Below are positions 23,659 to 37,761 of a DNA stretch of 52,857 nucleotides, in pieces (positions within the stretch are counted from its first letter, which is position 1; each line of letters starts with the position of its first letter). The translations under genes and the position numbers were made by a program. Source of the stretch: a bacterium (GTDB taxonomy: Bacteria; Pseudomonadota; Alphaproteobacteria; Rhizobiales; JAKIUO01). The notes below the pieces were generated by a model that made no database searches, had not been told where the DNA came from, and worked only from the letters and a program-made list of their open reading frames with translations. The stretch is taken from NCBI GenBank assembly GCA_024228495.1, contig JAAETJ010000217.1:1-52857 (forward strand), read 5' to 3'.

Positions 23659-25737
23659 CTATTTATGAAACGGGGGTTTTTTCATTTTTTTGCACCATTT
23701 GGGCGGGGTTTTGCTCAAAAAATATTTTTTGCGTTGATCGAGGGTGAGGCATTTTTGGGTGGCACGGCGGACCTTGTTGACGAGATCTTTGTTGGAGGCG
23801 AACAGAGGCCACAGGCGGATGGTGCCATCGCCTGATGCGGTGATAATGGCTTTGCCGTTGGGGGAAAAATTCGCATGAGTAACAATGCCCTTGTGTCCCT
23901 TGAGAATTTGCAACAGTTTGCCGGTTTTGACGTCCCAGACCATTGCGGTATTGTCTTTTGAGGCAGAGACAAGGCGCTTGCCATCAGGGCTGAACGAGGC
24001 GTGCAGGACGGCCCATTCATGGCCCTTGAGGGCGCGTACAAAAACACCAGATCGCGCTTGCCACAAACGCACAGTCTTGTCTTCCGAGGCCGTGGCGATC
24101 AGTTCTCCTTGCGGATCATAACGCACACTGCGCACTGAGTCGCTATGGCCCTCAAGCAGGGCCAGACGCTCGCCGCTGGAGACATCAAGGATGCGCACAA
24201 TTTTGTCGGTTGAAGCGGTGGCGATGCGGTTGCCATCAGGACTGAAATCGGCTGACTCAAGCCCCGCCTTGTGTCCCAGAAATGTTTTCAGCAATTGTCC
24301 GCCCGCCACCTCCCAGACTCTTGCCGTTTGATCGCCAGAAGTGGTGACGATACGCTGGCCGTTGCTGGAAAAAGCGGCGCTGGTGAGGTCATAACTATGA
24401 CCTTTGAGGGTTCGGATCAGCTTGCCCGTGCGTGCGTTGAACAAGCGTGCTTTGTTATCAAGAGCCGCCGTCAGGATCATGCTTTGATCGGGGCTGTAGA
24501 CGGCCCCATTGACGAATCCGTCATGCTGATCAAGGGTGAGAATAGCTTTTCTTTTGGCAATCGACCAGACACGAACTGTGCGGTCCCAGGAGGAAGAGAG
24601 GATCAATTTACCATTGGGGCTGAATGTAGCCCCGCTGACTTGATTTTCATGGCCGTTAAAGACCAGATTTTTCTGTTCCTTGATATAGGCAGTATAAAGG
24701 GCATCGCGCGCTTGCAGGCGGTCATCTGGTTGTTGCGCTTCGTTCAGGGCTTCAAGGGCCAGCAGCATGGCGGTTTGCGGGTCGCCGGTTTGGCCAAGAT
24801 GGTTGGCAACGCGCGACAGGAACAGGGACTGGCGCTTTTTGACATTGGCCAGCTCCTTGCGCATGGCGTCCTTGCCCCCTAAGGATCGATCAAAAATAAC
24901 ACCGATCAACACGGTTGCAAATATAAATAACATGAATGCGGCGCCAAACATCCGCATTTTATCGCCAGCGATCCATTTGCCGCTACGCTTTAATAGAGGT
25001 TTGAAATCCGGCATTTTGAAATAGCGTTTTTTAAATGTCTGGAGCCAGGGCATTTTGGGTATAAATTTGATGCCGGCCACCGGTAACTTCAAGCTTTTGG
25101 TTATCCAACCCGGAAAGGTGCTCCAGCGAATACCCTGGCGCAGCACTTTCAGGGTGCGATTAACATTGGCGGCGTGGCGCATGGCAGGGCGTATCAGTTT
25201 CTCGCTGCGATCAGGGCTGGATAATTTGCCGCGATCATGATCGGCGATGATGGTGCCTTGCAGCTCAATACCTGTTTGTGGATTGTTGCTGATTGGTGCG
25301 CTGGTGTCAGCGTCTGGTTTGGGTTCCGTTGCCTTGCTATTGCCCGCACACAATTGTTGCAACTTGTCTTTAAGGTCGCCAAGCCCCGTATCCCGGTTTT
25401 TGGTCATGTCGACCACAAAATTGCAATCTGTTATATCTGCGCTTGTCGGCGCTTCCAGAATGGCCAACATTGGCTTGTGGCGCGATACGGCCTCTTTCTT
25501 TTCCCATTGGCCAAGATTCGAAGCTTGCCAAAAGGGAGTAACAAGTAACAGGACAATTTCAGCTTCTGAGATGGAGGTTTGCAGATCAGCTTGCTGATCG
25601 TTAAAATCCCCTTGTTCCTGTTTTTTTGTGCGTGAGATCAAAATGGGGTCATGGGCATGTTCGCGCAACCATGATTGCAAGCCCAGGGCCGCCCGCTCGT
25701 CCCGGCTTGAATAGCTGATGAATATGCGCGCCATCAT
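23659..25737 (-). CDS. TIR-domain protein with membrane anchor and seven WD40 repeats
   Basis: 692 residues. The N-terminal TIR domain (about 3-130) begins ARIFISYSSRDERAALGLQSWL and has a QWEKKEAV segment whose Glu fits the NADase-type catalytic position. A Pro-rich basic region precedes one membrane helix at about 263-282 (GAAFMLFIFATVLIGVIF). A helical segment (LALEALNEAQQPDDRLQARDALY) follows, as found before WD40 in NACHT-WD40 proteins. Seven WD40 repeats come next (about 357-640; FSPNGKLILSSSWDRTVRVW and the like), forming one full propeller. No NACHT or NB-ARC ATPase lies between. GGAGGG precedes ATG ATG. It is probably a sensor whose TIR faces the cytoplasm; a signalling or anti-phage role is possible but unproven. 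Confidence 0.88.
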   Translation of the reverse strand: MMARIFISYSSRDERAALGLQSWLREHAHDPILISRTKKQEQGDFNDQQADLQTSISEAEIVLLLVTPFWQASNLGQWEKKEAVSRHKPMLAILEAPTSADITDCNFVVDMTKNRDTGLGDLKDKLQQLCAGNSKATEPKPDADTSAPISNNPQTGIELQGTIIADHDRGKLSSPDRSEKLIRPAMRHAANVNRTLKVLRQGIRWSTFPGWITKSLKLPVAGIKFIPKMPWLQTFKKRYFKMPDFKPLLKRSGKWIAGDKMRMFGAAFMLFIFATVLIGVIFDRSLGGKDAMRKELANVKKRQSLFLSRVANHLGQTGDPQTAMLLALEALNEAQQPDDRLQARDALYTAYIKEQKNLVFNGHENQVSGATFSPNGKLILSSSWDRTVRVWSIAKRKAILTLDQHDGFVNGAVYSPDQSMILTAALDNKARLFNARTGKLIRTLKGHSYDLTSAAFSSNGQRIVTTSGDQTARVWEVAGGQLLKTFLGHKAGLESADFSPDGNRIATASTDKIVRILDVSSGERLALLEGHSDSVRSVRYDPQGELIATASEDKTVRLWQARSGVFVRALKGHEWAVLHASFSPDGKRLVSASKDNTAMVWDVKTGKLLQILKGHKGIVTHANFSPNGKAIITASGDGTIRLWPLFASNKDLVNKVRRATQKCLTLDQRKKYFLSKTPPKWCKKMKKPPFHK

Positions 25738-27427: not shown

Positions 27428-27626
27428 ACTGGTTAAAACCGGCACTCATTGAGACAAATGAGCAAGGTCTTTAGAAAACCTTAACCTTACCTGCCTACAG
27501 CTAGACAAAATGATCTTTGCCTTTGCCATTTGATATCGGCAAGGGGCCCGTAATCTTTGTTTTTGCGTCTTCAATCGTATCTTACGGGATGTGATATGCC
27601 ACGCAAACAAAGCAGGGAACTTGTCT

Positions 27627-30287
27627 ATGTGCACGCAGGTTAGTCGGAAAAACAAACAACAAAAATCGGTAATTAGCATCCCTTTTTGGACCGGCGCAGG
27701 AGCACTGTCTGATGCTCACAAAACGATGATGTCCTTATTGATATTGCTGACGATTCTGCTTTATGCCGGGCCGGTGGTAGCCGCTCAAAACGGGCTGTAT
27801 GCCATCGAAAAAGAAAGCCCAGAATTAACAAATGCGGAGACTTTTCGCGTTGCACAGCTTTCCACTTCGCTGGAGAACTGGCACAATGATGCCTTTGCCA
27901 CCTTAGATTTACAAAAGCGTCTAGATCGATTGACTCGCAAGAAAAATCAAGATAATCGGCGTGGTCCCAAAAAACCAACGGTGACCAATAAACGCAAAAC
28001 AACGGCACGATCCAAAGTGCGAAAAGCTGTTGTCAAAAGAAAAACCAAAGCCAAGACCAAAATCGAGGTCAAAATCAAGGCCAGCACCAAGAAGAAGATC
28101 GTCGTTGCAGATACTGACGAAAAGCATGAAATTGTCCGTGAAGCAGCTATATTGCAGCGCTGTCTGCAAGCCGCTGGCTATTTCAATGAGGCGATTACGG
28201 GGCGTATTGAAAAATCAAGTCTACAAGCCTTCATGACCTTTCGCGATGACAATGATTTGCTTCATCGCTCAAACAACCTCTATGATCCTGTGATCCAAAA
28301 AGCCTTGTTCGAGCAGTGTCCGAAAGTAGCGCCAAGCGATCTTAATGGTGCCGATATTAGCACAATGGCCGGTAAAACGACAGCTGGTGCGGCACTAAAA
28401 AAAACCTCGACACCTGCAAAGCCGATAAACACCAAGGTCCATCAGGATCGGCTTGCTCATGACTTTGATCGATCGCAAGGACCATTGACAACTGCCAGCA
28501 TTGGTGCCACCAGGAAACAGGCGCGCATGTCGATTGTTGCCAAGAACTTGCCGGCAATCAGGAAGGCGCCTACCGCAAAAAGCAAACCAGTTAGCGGTGA
28601 AGAACTTGGAGAACGAACCTTTGCAAATGATGTGCTGGCTGCAACCAGTAGCAAGCCGATATCTTCATCGGTTGAAAAACCGGTTCAAAAGCTCGCCCGT
28701 CTCGACAAGCAAGACGCAACCGGTGTCACCTCTTCTTTTGCTGCAAAAAGCGTCACGGCCGACAAGGCTATTTCTGCTCCGTCTGGCTTTTCGAGCCGCG
28801 TTCCAAGTGCGAACGGCCAGAGCCCGGCACCATTTTCAAAGCGCTTGAGTATTGCAGATCTGGCGATGGCGAAACCAGCCAGCGCCAACACCTGTTCTCC
28901 GCAAAAACACGGCCCAGCGATTGCCATGAGCAAATTGCCGACCTTATCAACTTCTTCAAGGCAGGCATATCCCGTGCGCAACGCCAGCGCATATGACCCG
29001 TATATGAATGATGATAGCCCGTTGATCACCGGTTCGGTTTTGTCCTCTTCTTCAAAATCATCGGTGTCATCATCTTACGGCAACCCAATCGCCAGGGGCT
29101 TTAAAAAGCGCGTACGACTGGTGCAAATGAATATACCTGATAAGGCCTGTCTGCCGCAGGATCTTTATAATATGCTGGCCACAGCACATGGTCGCAAAAC
29201 CGATGTATCGATCTGCAAACGCGATTGTCTTCCAGCTCCCAGGTCCTTTTCGCAAGGACAAAAAGAGCTGTTTACCGAACAGTATGGTATCAATTGGTGC
29301 GGCACGAGATGCCTTGGCATTGCTGACCCTTTGCCACTATCAGAGCTTTTGAAAATTGAGCGTGAGGCGCGGGTACATGTTTGCATGAAGCCGCAGTTGA
29401 GCCTTGCATCAGTTTCCAAAAAAGGCCTGGATAGCGCTGGTATCAATACCTCGATCCGCAACTTGTACAAGCACCTGCCCGGGGGCTATGGCAATGCCGA
29501 TAATATCGCCGTGCTAATTGGCAACAAGAATTATAATGGTAATCTGGGCGCTCATGATGCGGGACACATAAATCTGGCTGCTATGAAAGCCTTGCTGATC
29601 GACCAGCTTGGTTATTCATCTGACAATGTGTTGATCCTTAAGGACGCAAAACTTGGTGATATGCAGCGTTTGTTTGGCCGCCCGAGAGATGTTAATGGTG
29701 AGTTGAAACGCAGACTTAAGTCTAATCCAGACGCTCAATTGATGATATATTTTTCAGGATACGCACGTTCGACGGGCCTTGGTTTGAACAATCATCTTCT
29801 GCCGGTTGATGCGGTCAGCGGGCGCGAGGATGAAACTGCTTATTCATTGAGCATCTTGTATGATAATTTGCGCGAACTTGATGCACGTACGACTCAGCTG
29901 TTTCTTGAAGCGAGTTTTAATACGGACCGATCCGGTGTAGTACAGGCTCCAAATATAGCGGAGCGACGCGTCAATGTGGCACCGATTGTGCCGGTACGTG
30001 GGTTGGCGGTGTTTACGGCCGCGACGGGCGATCAAAAACCATTGATCGATTCTGATACAGGTATTGGTCTTTTTACCCGCTATTTGATTAGTGGGTTGGC
30101 GGGGGGTGCTGATCAGCGCCCCATCGGTAATGGCGACCGCATTATCGATAGCGTGGAGCTTTATGTTCATCTGGCAGGCAATGTGCGCCTTGCGGCTCGC
30201 AAAACGCTGGGACTGCGCCAGAACCCAACCTTTTCACGTTCGGATAATCTGTTCTTGAGCCAATTGTCGAGAAAATCCGCGAAATAG
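27627..30287 (+). CDS. Secreted or anchored caspase-fold protein with degenerate active site
   Basis: 886 residues from ATG 27627 (AGGGAA upstream); an in-frame GTG at 27591 is less likely. A hydrophobic segment near residues 34-53 (MMSLLILLTILLYAGPVVAA) is a signal or anchor. A Lys/Arg-rich region follows, then a peptidoglycan-binding-like segment (ILQRCLQAAGYFNEAITGRIEKSSLQAF), then a long low-complexity Ser/Ala/Lys stretch. The last 260 or so residues have a caspase (peptidase C14) fold: NIAVLIGNKNY, MKALLIDQLGYSSDNVLILKDA, MIYFSGY, HLLPVDAV and GIGLFTRYLISGL. The catalytic HG of the usual SGHG is YA (SGYARS), and the DAC motif is EAS (FLEASFN). Protease activity is therefore unlikely. Confidence 0.85.
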   Translation: MCTQVSRKNKQQKSVISIPFWTGAGALSDAHKTMMSLLILLTILLYAGPVVAAQNGLYAIEKESPELTNAETFRVAQLSTSLENWHNDAFATLDLQKRLDRLTRKKNQDNRRGPKKPTVTNKRKTTARSKVRKAVVKRKTKAKTKIEVKIKASTKKKIVVADTDEKHEIVREAAILQRCLQAAGYFNEAITGRIEKSSLQAFMTFRDDNDLLHRSNNLYDPVIQKALFEQCPKVAPSDLNGADISTMAGKTTAGAALKKTSTPAKPINTKVHQDRLAHDFDRSQGPLTTASIGATRKQARMSIVAKNLPAIRKAPTAKSKPVSGEELGERTFANDVLAATSSKPISSSVEKPVQKLARLDKQDATGVTSSFAAKSVTADKAISAPSGFSSRVPSANGQSPAPFSKRLSIADLAMAKPASANTCSPQKHGPAIAMSKLPTLSTSSRQAYPVRNASAYDPYMNDDSPLITGSVLSSSSKSSVSSSYGNPIARGFKKRVRLVQMNIPDKACLPQDLYNMLATAHGRKTDVSICKRDCLPAPRSFSQGQKELFTEQYGINWCGTRCLGIADPLPLSELLKIEREARVHVCMKPQLSLASVSKKGLDSAGINTSIRNLYKHLPGGYGNADNIAVLIGNKNYNGNLGAHDAGHINLAAMKALLIDQLGYSSDNVLILKDAKLGDMQRLFGRPRDVNGELKRRLKSNPDAQLMIYFSGYARSTGLGLNNHLLPVDAVSGREDETAYSLSILYDNLRELDARTTQLFLEASFNTDRSGVVQAPNIAERRVNVAPIVPVRGLAVFTAATGDQKPLIDSDTGIGLFTRYLISGLAGGADQRPIGNGDRIIDSVELYVHLAGNVRLAARKTLGLRQNPTFSRSDNLFLSQLSRKSAK

Positions 30288-33516: not shown

Positions 33517-34041
33517 ATGAGACTATCAAGAATAGCGTTTCTTTTTTGCTCGATTGTCGGTTTGACCGGATTGCTGATCCAGCCAGCTATGGCAGCAGAG
33601 CATGCAAAGAAAATGACACCAGCCGCATTGGTTTCCTACAAGATCACCGACGGACCAGCCATTAAAGCCATCAACAAGTCACTTACCGGCAAAGCCGGAG
33701 ATATGGTTGCTGGTGAAAAAACCATGGTCAACAAGAAAAAAGGCAATTGCCTTGCTTGTCACGTCGTTACCAAGCTGAAGGCGCGAGCTGCTAAAAAACC
33801 CAAGAAATATGCTGATATGGGTCTCATCGGCCCGCCACTTGATGGCGCAGCAGGTCGCTATACGGAAGGTGAATTACGCATGATGCTGGTGAATGCCAAA
33901 GCCGCGTTTCCAGATACCATTATGCCGGGTTTTTATCGCGCAGATAAATTGACCAGAGTGATGGGTAAATTCAAGGGTAAAACCGTTATCAACGCTCAGG
34001 ACGTTGAAAATATTCTGGCCTTTTTGGTAACTCTTAAATAG
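33517..34041 (+). CDS. soxX: Sulfur oxidation c-type cytochrome SoxX
   Basis: 174 residues, with a signal peptide ending PAMAAE. The single haem site is CLACH (78-82) and the likely distal Met is in IMPGFYRADKL. GPPLDGAAGRYTEGELRMMLVNAK is typical of SoxX. SoxX pairs with SoxA to attach thiosulfate to SoxYZ in the periplasm. The GAGAGGAAG ribosome site is strong. It is followed by soxA after 46 bases; soxY and soxZ, often next in the operon, are absent from this window. Confidence 0.93.
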   Translation: MRLSRIAFLFCSIVGLTGLLIQPAMAAEHAKKMTPAALVSYKITDGPAIKAINKSLTGKAGDMVAGEKTMVNKKKGNCLACHVVTKLKARAAKKPKKYADMGLIGPPLDGAAGRYTEGELRMMLVNAKAAFPDTIMPGFYRADKLTRVMGKFKGKTVINAQDVENILAFLVTLK

Positions 34042-34087
34042 GTCTCGCGATATTCATATAGACATGAAAAGAACTGGAAGAAGTAAT

Positions 34088-34912
34088 ATGGGACGATTTA
34101 TTAAAATGGCATTGGCTGGTCTTGTTGCCAGTGTGCTGATGGGTGGAGCCGCCATGGCTGCCGCTGATGGCAAAAGTGCAGCTGTCATGAACAAGGGGGA
34201 TCATCCTCTGCCAGAAGTCTGGTCGGGCTACAAATGGGCCAAACCAGAGACACAGGCAACGCAGGATGACGAATTTGAAAACCCTGCCAATCTGTGGACG
34301 GAGCAAGGAAAGGCTCTTTGGTCAAAAGTAGATGGCAGTGCAAAGAAAAGCTGCCAAGAGTGTCACAACGATGCCAAATCATCAATGAAGGGTGTAGCAA
34401 CACGCTATCCCGTTTATTATGGCCCATGGAAAAAGCTCATCAATCTTGAGCAGCGCATCAATCTGTGCCGCACAAAATTCATGAAAGCCAAGGCCTTTAA
34501 ATGGAAATCAGACGATTTGCTTGGTATCACCATCTATGTTTCCAAACAGTCAAACGGTATGCCATCGGCAATTGAAGTCAATGCGCAGACCAAACCGTTC
34601 TGGGAAAAAGGTAAAGCGCATTATTACAAGCGTCGGGGGCAACTCGACATGGCTTGTTCTCACTGTCACGAGAAATATTTTGGTGGACAGCTTCGCTCTA
34701 ATGTCTTGACACAGGGGCATGCCAATGGTTTTCCAACTTATCGTTTAAAATGGCAAAGACCAGGATCGATTCAGCGTCGCTTTAAGGGCTGCAACAAACA
34801 GGTCCGTGCCAAACCGTACAAAATGGGTTCAGATGAATATATCAATCTGGAACATTATGTCAGATGGCGGGGCAATGGCCTTCCTAACGAAACACCCGCT
34901 GTTCGTAACTAG
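34088..34912 (+). CDS. soxA: Diheme thiosulfate-oxidation cytochrome SoxA
   Basis: 274 residues from ATG 34088, preceded by GGAAGAAG; an ATG at 34064 is possible but lacks a ribosome site. Signal peptide MGRFIKMALAGLVASVLMGGAAMAA. Two haem sites are seen, CQECH (89-93) and CSHCH (190-194). The active-site Cys ligand is Cys235 in RRFKGCNKQVRA. With SoxX it forms the c-type cytochrome complex that conjugates thiosulfate to SoxYZ. A terminator follows directly, so soxXA is a two-gene operon. Confidence 0.94.
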   Translation: MGRFIKMALAGLVASVLMGGAAMAAADGKSAAVMNKGDHPLPEVWSGYKWAKPETQATQDDEFENPANLWTEQGKALWSKVDGSAKKSCQECHNDAKSSMKGVATRYPVYYGPWKKLINLEQRINLCRTKFMKAKAFKWKSDDLLGITIYVSKQSNGMPSAIEVNAQTKPFWEKGKAHYYKRRGQLDMACSHCHEKYFGGQLRSNVLTQGHANGFPTYRLKWQRPGSIQRRFKGCNKQVRAKPYKMGSDEYINLEHYVRWRGNGLPNETPAVRN

Positions 34913-34940
34913 GTCAGATCGAGTTTAACGAGATTTGTGA

Positions 34941-34976
34941 AAAGGCAGTGCTTTTGCGGCGCTGCCTTTTTCTTTT
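34941..34976 (+). terminator. Terminator after soxXA
   Basis: AAAGGCAGTGC (34941-34951) pairs with GCGCTGCCTTT (34959-34969; one G-T wobble) around a TTTTGCG loop. TTTTTCTTTT follows. It ends the soxXA transcript. Confidence 0.85.
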
Positions 34977-35054
34977 GTATTTTGTGACGCTCGACGTAAG
35001 GGCTACAATGCAAAAGTTCTGTATTTAGTCGGGTAATGATTGATTGAGCCGCTG

Positions 35055-35589
35055 TCAAAGCTCCTTAAATAAGGCCGAGGCTTTGGATTGACGTTTCAGA
35101 GATGCAAAAAATAATCGTCCATCAAAATGGGGGTCGCGCAAACGATTTGAAGTGATTTCGTAGTGGGCTGGCGGGTTAGTCAAATCTCGATGGGAACAGA
35201 TTGTCTGGCTATTTGCCCAATCTTTGATGTGCAAGGCTTTGTGCCGGCCAGCGCGATCTACAAAGCAGCGGACCAGTTGGTCTTTATGAGATCTTTTAAT
35301 TCGTGCTTTCTTGATTTGTGCATTTTGTGCGGCCATCCAGTAAACCCAAACAAAGCTGCGCTCGCCTATCAGATTAGCAGTGATCATGGGTCTCGGTGAG
35401 GGGACAGGCTTGGCTGGCGACGCGGCCCGATTGTCCAGCTTCGCGCCAAAACGGCTCGTCACAAAGGGTAACAGCCTTGGCCTGCGTGGCTATCCAGGTC
35501 AGAGTATACTTCATCTCTTGTCGCACGTCACTGGCTAGTTTTTTTGACCAATCAATATTTTGAGCGATGATCCGTAATGGTGCAACCAT
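35055..35589 (-). pseudogene. Flavin amine oxidase gene remnant, frameshifted
   Basis: Reading the minus strand across two frames reproduces the C-terminal half of a flavin monoamine oxidase. The first frame ends EPFWREAGQSGRVASQ and LTETHDH. After a frameshift near 35380 the second continues ANLIGERSFVWVYW, then QLVRCFVDRAGRH, ALHIKDW and LRDPHFDGRLFFAS. Intact relatives read FWREAGLSG, then IHD, QLxRLFG, QDWA and DPxWDGRLxFA. The FAD-binding 5' half is missing. The 5' side meets an IS5-type remnant. It lies between soxA and soxB. Confidence 0.7.
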
Positions 35590-35649
35590 GATGATTCGGC
35601 GCGCTTGAAGAGAAAACTATTTATTCTGATCTTAACAATGAACTAAACT

Positions 35650-35800
35650 GCTCTCGCGGTAGTGGTGCTTGTGGATACAAGAACCACATCAATGTGGACC
35701 GGTGTCATAAATTCATCCACACCCATGAAGTGAGTGATGCCAGCCCGCACGACAGCCAGGCGCTTGAAGCTTTCACCGGACTCCATCGGGGAGGCTCTCC
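35650..35800 (+). mobile_element. IS5-type transposase fragment
   Basis: The plus-strand frame reads CGYKNHINVDRCHKFIHTHE followed by VSDASPHDSQALEAF, which is the GYKNH...VTDASVHDSQ core of IS5-type DDE transposases. Only about 45 residues remain and both ends are lost. Insertion sequence activity probably shaped the soxA-soxB interval. Confidence 0.78.
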
Positions 35801-35838
35801 TTCATTTTTATTTGGCTGATTGTATCACTTGCCATGTC

Positions 35839-37761
35839 CTACCCGTCGCTATTGCCAACAGCGCCTGGATAGTCTGCGACGCCGGGATTGTTTGCAACGC
35901 CGAGTAATTTGGGATGGTTGGTTTTCTTGAGGTGCAGGACCCCTTTGTCGTCTTTGGTATTGAGGATATAATCGCGAATGACATCCCAGATCATGCGTCC
36001 TTCTGGCGTCCGGTTAACAACCGCCCAACCGGCGACCTTGTATTTCTTGTCTGGCTCAATCAACTCGCCATTGTCGAGACGGGCATCGGTGATGCGCTTG
36101 AACAGTTTCTTGGTGGGGTCGATGGTGTAATCAAGGCCACCAACGCGTACCATGTCGCCACCAGATTGCAGATAGGGATCAGGGTCGAGCAGATTGTCGG
36201 CGACCTGTTCGAGAACATTCAAAAGCTGCTTGCCGGTCATTTCGTTAGCATAGGTTTCGCCATAGGTCATGGAGCATTGGCTCATCACATCATCAAAGGT
36301 GATCATATGGCCCTTGGGAACGGTTGGCCCCCAGCGCACGCCCGCTGACATGGCAATATGAGCGCCATATTCATCGCGCAGGGCGTTACAGATGACCTGA
36401 TCCCAAGTGCCCATAAAGTTGGAGCGCCGATAAAGTGTTTCTCCAGCAACAGCCAATTTCTCGGTTTTGATTTCTTTAAATGTCTTGCCGTTACGCAGCT
36501 TTGAGTTGGCACGGTCTTTTGCGCGACTTTCAACAACTTTGTCGTCATATTTCTGTTTGTCAAGCTGGGTCAGAAAGGCGGTCATTTCTTTGTCGGCGGG
36601 CAGTTTGTTTTCAAACACGGCGTGCATTTTGTAATGCATCTCTTTGAGTTTGTCGCCGTCGAATTCGAAATCCATAACGCCGATAAATTTACCCGAGCAA
36701 CCGGCATTGGTGACAAGACAGGTACCCCCCTTAGTATCCTTGACCGGTAGAGGTTTTGGCACGCCATCATGAGTATGGCCGCCAAAAATAGCATCCATGC
36801 CGGGGATCTCGCTGGCCATTTTAATGTCCACATCCATACCTGAATGGGAGATCAGCACGACGGCTGCGGGTTTTTCTTCCGTGCGGATTTTTTTCACAAG
36901 ATCGCGCATATCGGGGATGCGCAGGCCAAATGACCAGTCGGGAAAAAACTCGGGAGGATTGGCATTGGCGGTGCGCGGGAAGGCCTGACCGATGACGGCG
37001 ATCTTGCGCCCGTTGATCTCTTTCATCACATAGGGCTGAAAGGCGTGGCCGCTATCTTCGTCGAACATGCCTTTGCCATCATATTTTTCAACGAGCTCTG
37101 GATAGCTGTCGCCCATCATACTCTCGTCCTTGACGCGCACATTCTGGCCGATGAAATCGCCCTTGAACAAAGCGACATTGCTTAAAACTTCTTGCTCTGG
37201 ATAGGTGAACTCCCAATGTCCCACCATGACATTGACGCCCAGAATATTGCAGGCCTCGACCATATCGATTCCCCTGGTCCAGAGTGAAGTACCAGATCCC
37301 TGCCAGGTGTCTCCGCCATCGAGGGTCAAGGTTTTGTCTGTGCCTCCAGCGTCCTTGCGGATGCGATCAATCAAGGTCTTGATATGAGCAAAGCCACCCA
37401 TGCGGCCATATTTTTTGACGCCCTCTTCAAAGTCCAAATAAGTGTAGGCATAGGCCTCGGGGCTGTTCGTCGTCATGCCCATGGCTTTGAGTAGTTTCTC
37501 GCCCACCAGATGCGGGGCGCGCCCAAAGGCATCGCCGATGCCAAGATTAACATTGGGCTCGCGAAAATAAACCGGATGCAGCTGACCATGCACATCCGTG
37601 ATGTGGATGATACGGGCATCGCCCTTCATGGGGGTCTTGTAATAATCAGCATCGTCTGCGGCAACGGCACTTGTGCCACTCATCCACCAAGGCAGCGTAC
37701 CTCCAAGCGCGCCACTGGCAGCCATCAGTTGCAGGAGCTGGCGTCTGTTAATCTTTGACAT
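35839..37761 (-). CDS. soxB: Thiosulfohydrolase SoxB
   Basis: 640 residues. SoxB hydrolyses the terminal sulfone from sulfur-charged SoxYZ to release sulfate and needs two Mn ions. Motifs: HITDVHGQLHP, LDGGDTWQGSGTSLW, VMVGHWEFTYPE, LISHSGMD and FGGHTHDG, then the nucleotidase-like C-terminal domain. A Tat-type N-terminus is likely (NRRQLLQLMAASGALGG). It lies on the strand opposite to soxXA and converges with it, separated by decayed genes, so it is a separate transcription unit. No strong Shine-Dalgarno is seen. Confidence 0.95.
   Translation of the reverse strand: MSKINRRQLLQLMAASGALGGTLPWWMSGTSAVAADDADYYKTPMKGDARIIHITDVHGQLHPVYFREPNVNLGIGDAFGRAPHLVGEKLLKAMGMTTNSPEAYAYTYLDFEEGVKKYGRMGGFAHIKTLIDRIRKDAGGTDKTLTLDGGDTWQGSGTSLWTRGIDMVEACNILGVNVMVGHWEFTYPEQEVLSNVALFKGDFIGQNVRVKDESMMGDSYPELVEKYDGKGMFDEDSGHAFQPYVMKEINGRKIAVIGQAFPRTANANPPEFFPDWSFGLRIPDMRDLVKKIRTEEKPAAVVLISHSGMDVDIKMASEIPGMDAIFGGHTHDGVPKPLPVKDTKGGTCLVTNAGCSGKFIGVMDFEFDGDKLKEMHYKMHAVFENKLPADKEMTAFLTQLDKQKYDDKVVESRAKDRANSKLRNGKTFKEIKTEKLAVAGETLYRRSNFMGTWDQVICNALRDEYGAHIAMSAGVRWGPTVPKGHMITFDDVMSQCSMTYGETYANEMTGKQLLNVLEQVADNLLDPDPYLQSGGDMVRVGGLDYTIDPTKKLFKRITDARLDNGELIEPDKKYKVAGWAVVNRTPEGRMIWDVIRDYILNTKDDKGVLHLKKTNHPKLLGVANNPGVADYPGAVGNSDG

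What the first reader, a model, noticed from the sequence alone, without database searches (positions are those of the whole stretch)
27627..30287. Caspase-fold protein with both catalytic residues replaced
SGHG reads SGYA and the DAC(R) motif reads EAS(F), while IGN, LLPVDA and the core strands are kept. The protein has an anchor, a peptidoglycan-binding-like segment and a long low-complexity stalk. A catalytically dead caspase-fold domain displayed in the periplasm is unusual and may act as a scaffold or inhibitor.
Basis: partly seen in the sequence, partly recalled or inferred. Interest (0 to 1): 0.6.

Follow-up and report, generated by a model that had tools for sequence, protein, structure and literature searches.

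The report
Catalytically dead secreted bacterial caspase-like protein
This bacterial gene makes a probably exported, cell-wall-associated relative of caspases whose cutting site has been lost throughout its family while the fold stays strongly conserved, so it most likely works by binding rather than cutting; dead bacterial caspases are already known, but this cysteine-free family and its pairing with other caspase genes in some lineages look undescribed.

Summary
In detail: a C14 caspase domain lies at aa 638-884, with Tyr for the catalytic His and Ser for the catalytic Cys. Homologues split the finding. Cys is absent in 36 of 36 family members; His is kept in 31 of 36, so among five congeners only this genome has Tyr. 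All 32 full-length p20 domains lack any cysteine. Within the genus p20 is strongly constrained (dN/dS 0.05-0.11; linker 0.20-0.33). Dead bacterial caspases are a known class, 'pseudo-orthocaspases', in which Tyr/Ser is the commonest pair (PMC6426788). What looks new is a six-cysteine, probably exported family found only within one order in my searches. Four of its deepest-branching copies lie convergent with an intact caspase-FGE gene, and seven copies in one genus lie in tandem with a second dead caspase; the window's copy has no such neighbour. Of 24 carrier genomes tested, 1 has photosynthetic reaction-centre genes, against a published photosynthesis link. Best reading: a non-proteolytic binding module at the cell wall. 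Export, wall binding and binding function are inferred.

The parts
27627..30287 (+). pseudo-orthocaspase gene (frame open from GTG 27591; likely start ATG 27627)
   Evidence: homologues in all five genomes of the genus
27726..27785 (+). probable signal peptide core (aa 46-65, MMSLLILLTILLYAGPVVAA)
   Evidence: hydropathy scan (27 of 33 members have a similar stretch) and A-x-A-like end by eye; no dedicated predictor was available
28146..28331 (+). PG_binding_1-like segment (aa 186-247)
   Evidence: profile made without the window's genus, E 1e-16 in a one-sequence search; Pfam PG_binding_1 over cut-off in homologue L058; not reported by Pfam in the window protein itself
28341..29129 (+). Ser/Thr/Lys/Ala-rich linker (aa 251-513)
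   Evidence: dN/dS 0.20-0.33 in the 6 of 10 pairs that could be computed
29142..29390 (+). six-cysteine module (aa 518-600; Cys 520, 542, 546, 570, 574, 598)
   Evidence: all six Cys present in 34 of 34 members in which the whole module is in view
29502..30242 (+). cysteine-free caspase-fold (p20, Peptidase_C14) domain, aa 638-884
29571..29573 (+). Asn 661 at the position of an Asp that is nearly invariant in active C14 proteins
   Evidence: alignment with active C14 proteins; Asn in 5 of 5 congeners, Asp in 18 of 36 members. That this is the S1-pocket Asp95 of TbMC2 is my own mapping
29760..29762 (+). Tyr 724 at the catalytic His position
29907..29915 (+). Glu-Ala-Ser (aa 773-775) where active relatives have Asp/Glu-x-Cys

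Best explanation
The gene encodes a pseudo-orthocaspase, a caspase-fold protein without proteolytic activity, that is exported to the periplasm, probably held at the peptidoglycan by a PG_binding_1-like segment, and stabilised by disulfides in a six-cysteine module. The dead p20 domain is kept as a binding surface that presents or sequesters a protein at the cell wall; in the lineages where the gene sits beside another caspase-fold gene, that neighbour is the first candidate partner. Shown by computation: the fold, loss of Cys across the family, absence of any other Cys in the domain, purifying selection within the genus, and adjacency to caspase-fold genes in sister lineages. Inferred: export, wall binding, disulfides, and the binding function itself.
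For: C14 fold by profile (20 of 20 members of alignment A3 hit PF00656 at E up to 0.01) and by model (best Z 9.3 to yeast metacaspase Yca1). Cys site: S 19, E 7, G 6, D 2, N 2, C 0 of 36; His kept in 31 of 36; no Cys in p20 in 35 of 36 (32 of 32 full-length domains; the one Cys is in a frameshifted fragment). p20 dN/dS 0.05-0.11 against linker 0.20-0.33. Six Cys invariant in 34 of 34. PG-binding-like segment. Convergent intact C14-FGE gene at four deep-branching loci; tandem second dead caspase at 7 of 7 main-type loci of genus g113.
Against: No experiment, and none of the papers I opened deals with this family. The window's own lineage has no caspase gene next to this one, so a partner there is hypothetical. 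Most members keep the His and all keep the neighbouring Glu, so some chemistry cannot be strictly excluded for them. The p20 model is confident over only part of the domain, Foldseek TM-scores are low (0.33 for the best match), and the model with the six-Cys module failed. The PG-binding-like segment was seen in 22 of 33 members by a simple pattern. Localisation rests on sequence features alone.
Confidence: 0.68

Rival explanations
1. FLIP(L)-like regulator: the dead domain pairs with an active periplasmic orthocaspase of the same cell and switches it on or off.
For: Four deep-branching family loci lie convergent with an intact His/Cys C14-FGE gene, and two further loci have an intact C14 gene (with a DUF4384 match below cut-off) about 3 kb upstream. 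The five congeners, window genome included, hold 5 to 18 C14 matches each. FLIP(L) and TbMC4 are described as acting on active relatives (PMC7586951 abstract; PMC6426788).
Against: No caspase gene is adjacent in the window's lineage, in the g31 loci fetched, or beside L106, the next branch. Convergent genes are not co-transcribed. C14-FGE-like genes are common (661 of 72,556 plasmid records match such a protein, 6 of them over 80% of it). The authors of PMC6426788 think regulation of active relatives unlikely. Caspase genes also cluster otherwise (5 of 49 listed matches within 3 kb of another, all in one cluster).
Confidence: 0.18
2. Substrate trap: the pocket still binds basic peptides but cannot cut them.
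For: Glu at the DAC-Asp position is present in 36 of 36 and the pocket Asp in 18 of 36; PMC6426788 proposes that the pocket persists in cyanobacterial pseudo-forms.
Against: The pocket Asp is Asn in 5 of 5 members of the window's genus and Asn, Ser or Glu in 12 of the other 30 with a letter there, so the window protein is a poor candidate.
Confidence: 0.1
3. Another nucleophile: a peptidase or transferase that uses Ser, Asp or Glu at the old Cys site.
For: The His is kept in 31 of 36 and Ser is the commonest replacement, 19 of 36.
Against: The site also holds Gly in 6 and Asn in 2 members, and the window protein has lost the His.
Confidence: 0.04
4. A decaying gene or a sequencing or assembly artefact.
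For: The His change is confined to one of five congeners, and three g31 copies are split by frameshifts.
Against: 898 open codons, similar gene order in L026 and L027 (judged by eye), p20 dN/dS 0.05-0.08 in the window's own three computable pairs, Cys loss in all 36 members.
Confidence: 0.03
5. A role in photosynthesis, as proposed for bacterial pseudo-orthocaspases in general.
For: Published correlation (PMC6426788).
Against: Reaction-centre genes (PF00124) in 1 of 24 carrier genomes tested, 1 of 19 among the well-completed ones; 9 of the 33 carriers were not tested; the window's genome has none.
Confidence: 0.02

Closest known systems
Bacterial pseudo-orthocaspases (Klemencic et al. 2019, PMC6426788; parts 1-5 of 6 read)
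   Same: p20 domain with replaced His/Cys pair; 90% of them in Alphaproteobacteria (nearly all Rhizobiales) and Cyanobacteria; Tyr/Ser is the commonest pair and is exactly what the window has; cyanobacterial YS forms also carry a signal-like N terminus
   Different: Here the p20 is C-terminal behind a six-Cys module, whereas the paper's alphaproteobacterial YS and YA forms mostly have prolonged C-termini; this family is mainly His/Ser, His/Glu or His/Gly, pairs not among the commonest that the paper names for Rhizobiales; 1 of 24 carriers tested has reaction-centre genes
SyOC of Synechocystis PCC 6803 (PMC7889975, abstract read)
   Same: a bacterial pseudo-orthocaspase with a phenotype: its deletion raises tolerance to oxidative stress
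   Different: another lineage; none of the window protein's added modules is mentioned in the abstract
FLIP(L), human pseudo-caspase (PMC7586951, abstract read)
   Same: caspase paralogue without activity that regulates an active relative
   Different: cytoplasmic with death-effector domains (recalled), animal; no partner of the window protein is known
Prokaryotic caspase homologues with a putative peptidoglycan-binding domain (11 of 671 in PMC3501461, passages read)
   Same: combination of a C14 domain with a putative peptidoglycan-binding domain
   Different: the passages read give no dyad status for those 11; here the dyad is lost
Intact orthocaspases nearest to the family outside the order (L099, L100, L101, from G588 and G680)
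   Same: p20 domain, 214-224 bits to the family profile
   Different: intact SGHG and DAC motifs; the family profile matches only from position 107-114, so no six-Cys module was found

Membership tests
Peptidase_C14 (caspase domain, Pfam PF00656) | profile score over the curated cut-off | tested here: met
   29.7 bits against 21.4
Peptidase_C14 (caspase domain, Pfam PF00656) | caspase-hemoglobinase fold | tested here: met
   model core aligned to metacaspases and caspases, best Z 9.3, rmsd 2.9 over 134 residues; the model is confident only over part of the domain
Active C14 cysteine peptidase | catalytic His/Cys dyad | tested here: not met
   Tyr 724 and Ser 775
Pseudo-orthocaspase (PMC6426788) | p20 homology with one or both dyad residues replaced | tested here: met
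   definition
Pseudo-orthocaspase (PMC6426788) | no p10 domain | not tested
   no p10-only profile was run
YS clades of pseudo-orthocaspases (PMC6426788) | descent from an ancestor that already had Tyr/Ser | tested here: not met
   the four congeners keep His, with Ser or Asp at the other site; Tyr occurs in 1 of 36 members; tree. The paper's own sequences were not placed in my tree
NCBIfam NF047832 caspase, EACC1-associated type | score over the curated cut-off of 140 bits | tested here: not met
   38.5 bits
Six-Cys pseudo-caspase family described here | six conserved Cys followed by a Cys-free p20 with LE-x-[not C]-[FY] | tested here: met

The most novel reading that the evidence does not exclude
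A secreted family of obligately cysteine-free pseudo-caspases that arose beside an active periplasmic orthocaspase-FGE gene as its non-catalytic partner (a bacterial counterpart of the FLIP/caspase-8 pair), and that in some lineages took a second dead caspase as neighbour or went on alone as a wall-bound binding protein. (Odds lowered slightly on re-checking: whether the convergent pairing is ancestral or belongs to one side branch is not settled by the two trees.)
Probability: 0.15. Interest if true: 0.7.

Novelty: new variant of a known kind. Interest (0 to 1): 0.42.

Why it matters
Whether bacterial pseudo-caspases regulate active ones or do something else is open; the survey I read (PMC6426788) argued against regulation and for photosynthesis. 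This family gives a testable case: mostly non-phototrophic carriers among those tested, no copy with the catalytic Cys, and natural gene pairs of a dead and an intact caspase (for example the G250 and G014 loci) that can be co-expressed directly.

Tried and rejected
Another Cys as nucleophile: rejected, p20 of the window protein has no Cys. Local mutation or pseudogene: rejected for the Cys by 36 homologues and by dN/dS, accepted for the His. Photosynthesis role: 1 of 24 carrier genomes tested. Defence system: no PADLOC match for the window protein at E up to 0.01; the FGE-type neighbour of L074 and the tandem neighbour of L072 match a PADLOC 'caspase' model at 27.5 and 19.8 bits, not followed. 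A partner in the window's own genome: no DUF4384 match at E up to 0.1; 12 FGE matches, among them a C14-FGE open frame on C1092, none on the window's contig, and the assembly is large (5.1 Mb, 1254 contigs) so some contigs may be foreign; not followed. A sulfur-oxidation link (sox-like genes downstream, named by eye) was not pursued: the genes around L060-L063 look different by eye. First structure model (six-Cys plus p20, 4 rows) failed at mean pLDDT 39.9 and was not used. A second viral-contig scan, with an intact relative as query, found nothing. Single-sequence search of solved structures found nothing at E up to 1; the profile found metacaspase-1 (best, 3.8e-5) and MALT1. Plasmid records: one weak match to the window protein, Methylobacterium aquaticum, 27% of the query; C14-FGE proteins are common there. 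Class-wide search: 3 of 385 genomes at E up to 1e-60, of which only the window's own over the full profile; the two others carry intact caspases. In some searches only the best 4 or 5 candidates of each genome were scored, so these counts may be low. Rows not counted among the 36: L021/L028 (second contig of the G004 gene), the fragment in G373, two small pieces in G782, and other pieces of the split copies in G212, G283 and G396.

Full report
What is there. The ORF at 27591-30287 (+), or from ATG 27627, encodes up to 898 aa. Pfam finds one domain, Peptidase_C14, at aa 638-884 (E 6.7e-7, 29.7 bits, cut-off 21.4). The same profile finds eight C14 places in the source genome, of which this is the weakest. 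In alignments with intact C14 proteins the His position is Tyr 724 and the Cys position is Ser 775, with Glu 773 before it.

Family. Of 61 relatives searched with the protein, 12 have a match at E up to 1e-10; nine of these carry this family, all five genomes of the genus among them, and three (G021, G042, G052) only ordinary intact C14 proteins. A profile of nine members searched in 397 genomes of the order gave 43 with a match at E up to 1e-20; in 24 of them the match includes the N-terminal six-Cys module or a piece of such a gene, and the others match the C14 part or a small fragment; those of the others that I read have an intact His/Cys pair. A later profile at E up to 1e-60 matched 3 of 385 genomes of the class, over its full length only the window's own; the two others carry intact caspases without the six-Cys module. 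Only the best 4 or 5 candidates of each genome were scored. With all candidates scored, 2 of 20 genomes of family f11 and 24 of 30 of family f31 match. I assembled 36 gene loci from 33 genomes (four of them partial). At the Cys site they have S 19, E 7, G 6, D 2, N 2 and C 0. At the His site they have H 31, L 3, Y 1, A 1. The six N-terminal Cys are present in 34 of 34 members in which the whole module is in view. p20 has no Cys in 35 of 36 (32 of 32 full-length domains; the exception is the frameshifted fragment L077). Loss of the Cys is thus a fixed family trait, while loss of the His is scattered over the tree (window; L017; L075; L076; L111) and came later.

Is it under selection? Pairwise dN/dS by a Nei-Gojobori script among five congeners was 0.054-0.110 for p20 (6 of 10 pairs computable, the rest saturated), 0.061-0.208 for the six-Cys module (8 of 10), 0.099-0.294 for the PG-binding-like segment (5 of 6 comparisons), 0.202-0.326 for the linker (6 of 10) and 0.274-0.522 for the N-terminal part (6 of 6). 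Synonymous sites are near saturation in several pairs, so the ratios are rough, but the dead domain is clearly among the best-kept parts.

Pocket. An Asp that is nearly invariant in the aligned active C14 proteins is Asn in all five congeners, Asp in 18 of 36 members, and Asn, Ser or Glu in the rest, with one gap. I equate it with the S1-pocket Asp95 of TbMC2 named in PMC6426788; that equation is mine. If it is right, the window protein has probably lost substrate recognition as well as catalysis.

Other parts. A hydrophobic stretch (mean hydropathy 2.2 or more over 14 residues) lies near the N terminus in 27 of 33 members, often followed by an A-x-A-like site judged by eye; some of the six without it are cut by contig ends. 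A cleaved signal peptide is therefore more likely than an anchor; no predictor was available. Segment aa 186-247 matches a profile built without the window's genus (E 1e-16 against one sequence); a simple pattern finds such a segment in 22 of 33 members. In homologue L058 it passes the Pfam PG_binding_1 cut-off, in L017 it matches below the cut-off.

Structure. A first model with the six-Cys module failed (mean pLDDT 39.9). A second, p20 alone with five rows, had mean pLDDT 58.8, with block means of 60-89 over residues 31-150 and under 60 for most of the rest. Foldseek's best PDB matches were MALT1 (E 2.6e-4, TM-score 0.33 by query), and the second look put yeast metacaspase Yca1 first (Z 9.3, rmsd 2.9, 134 aligned), followed by caspases, MALT1 and metacaspases. 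The low TM-scores probably reflect the poor C-terminal third.

Neighbourhood. In the window the gene lies between a cytochrome c' gene and a phosphoesterase gene, and by eye the order is the same in L026 and L027. No caspase gene is adjacent. In other lineages one is. At seven of seven main-type loci of genus g113 a second caspase-fold gene lies directly upstream on the same strand; it has Leu, Tyr or Phe for the His and Ser at the Cys site in all seven. Of two such partners scanned, L072 passes the Pfam DUF4384 cut-off but gets no Pfam C14 match, and L079 passes the C14 cut-off and matches DUF4384 below its cut-off. At four loci (G014, G202, and the second copies of G250 and G786) a C14 gene with intact His/Cys lies convergent, about 20-95 bases away; the two scanned also carry an FGE-sulfatase domain over cut-off, and the others match a profile of these proteins or were built into it. 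These four are among the deepest branches of the family. In one tree three of them form a single clade beside all others (SH-aLRT 86), in the other the base is unresolved, so the pairing may be ancestral or a trait of one side branch. The next branch, L106, has no such neighbour on its 7.4-kb contig, and L105 and L107, relatives of the g113 copies in other genera, lack the tandem partner (L107 has only about 560 bases upstream). G786 was fetched after the pattern had been seen elsewhere and fitted it at both its loci. In G782 and G784 an intact C14 gene, with a DUF4384 match below cut-off, lies about 3 kb upstream. Background: among 49 C14 matches in the five congeners, 5 lie within 3 kb of another, all in one cluster, and C14-FGE proteins are common in general. 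The pattern is phylogenetically clustered and stands for few events, not eleven.

How it probably works. I read it as a wall-associated, non-catalytic binding protein whose caspase fold was kept as an interaction surface. The pairings in sister lineages make a caspase-fold partner the first candidate, but nothing in the window's own lineage shows one.

What is known. Pseudo-orthocaspases are described: 858 of 9,994 bacterial orthocaspases, 561 of 582 alphaproteobacterial ones in Rhizobiales, YS the commonest pair (PMC6426788; parts 1-5 of 6 read). That paper links them to photosynthesis and thinks regulation of active relatives unlikely. Of 24 carrier genomes tested (of 33), 1 has reaction-centre genes, so for this family the link is not borne out. 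PMC3501461 (passages) reports peptidoglycan-binding domains in 11 of 671 prokaryotic homologues. SyOC (abstract) shows that a bacterial pseudo-orthocaspase can have a phenotype. In five paper searches I saw no listing that describes a six-Cys, Cys-free family or its pairing with C14-FGE genes; for most papers only titles and abstract starts were seen, and supplementary tables of PMC6426788, which may list members, were not read.

Verdict. A real, conserved pseudoenzyme of a known class, in a probably undescribed variant that I found within one order only; the His change in the window is a late, local step. Interest moderate.

Noticed in passing
window 23659-25737 (-): TIR-like domain (by eye, and weak PADLOC ThsB matches), a hydrophobic stretch and WD40 repeats in one protein; its N-terminal part (L026) or two frames of it (L027) lie at the same relative place in two congeners.
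   Followed up: partly
window 33517-37761: sox-like genes (cytochrome-like and SoxB-like proteins, named by eye), a few kb downstream of the pseudo-caspase.
   Followed up: no
L075, L077, L078 (G212, G283, G396): Family copies split over two or three frames in three g31 genomes: decay or assembly error. The copy in G202 (L076) was listed with one TGA, which may be its normal stop.
   Followed up: no
L069, L070, L071, L072, L073, L079, L103: A second dead caspase-fold family, some with a DUF4384-like C terminus, with Leu, Tyr or Phe for His and Ser at the Cys site, directly upstream of the six-Cys family in genus g113.
   Followed up: partly
G002 contig C74, 515-13365: Six C14 caspase-fold matches in 13 kb in a congener of the window's genome.
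   Followed up: no
G000 assembly: 5.1 Mb in 1254 contigs against 2.7-3.8 Mb in its four congeners; twelve FGE-sulfatase matches; foreign contigs are possible.
   Followed up: no
G004 C77 and C1: One family gene lies on two contig ends whose pieces differ in identity to the window (65% and 90%) and overlap in query residues 732-777.
   Followed up: no
L065 9580-12702 (G361): Downstream of this family copy the proteins look like AprB, AprA and Sat (named by eye), another sulfur-oxidation neighbourhood.
   Followed up: no
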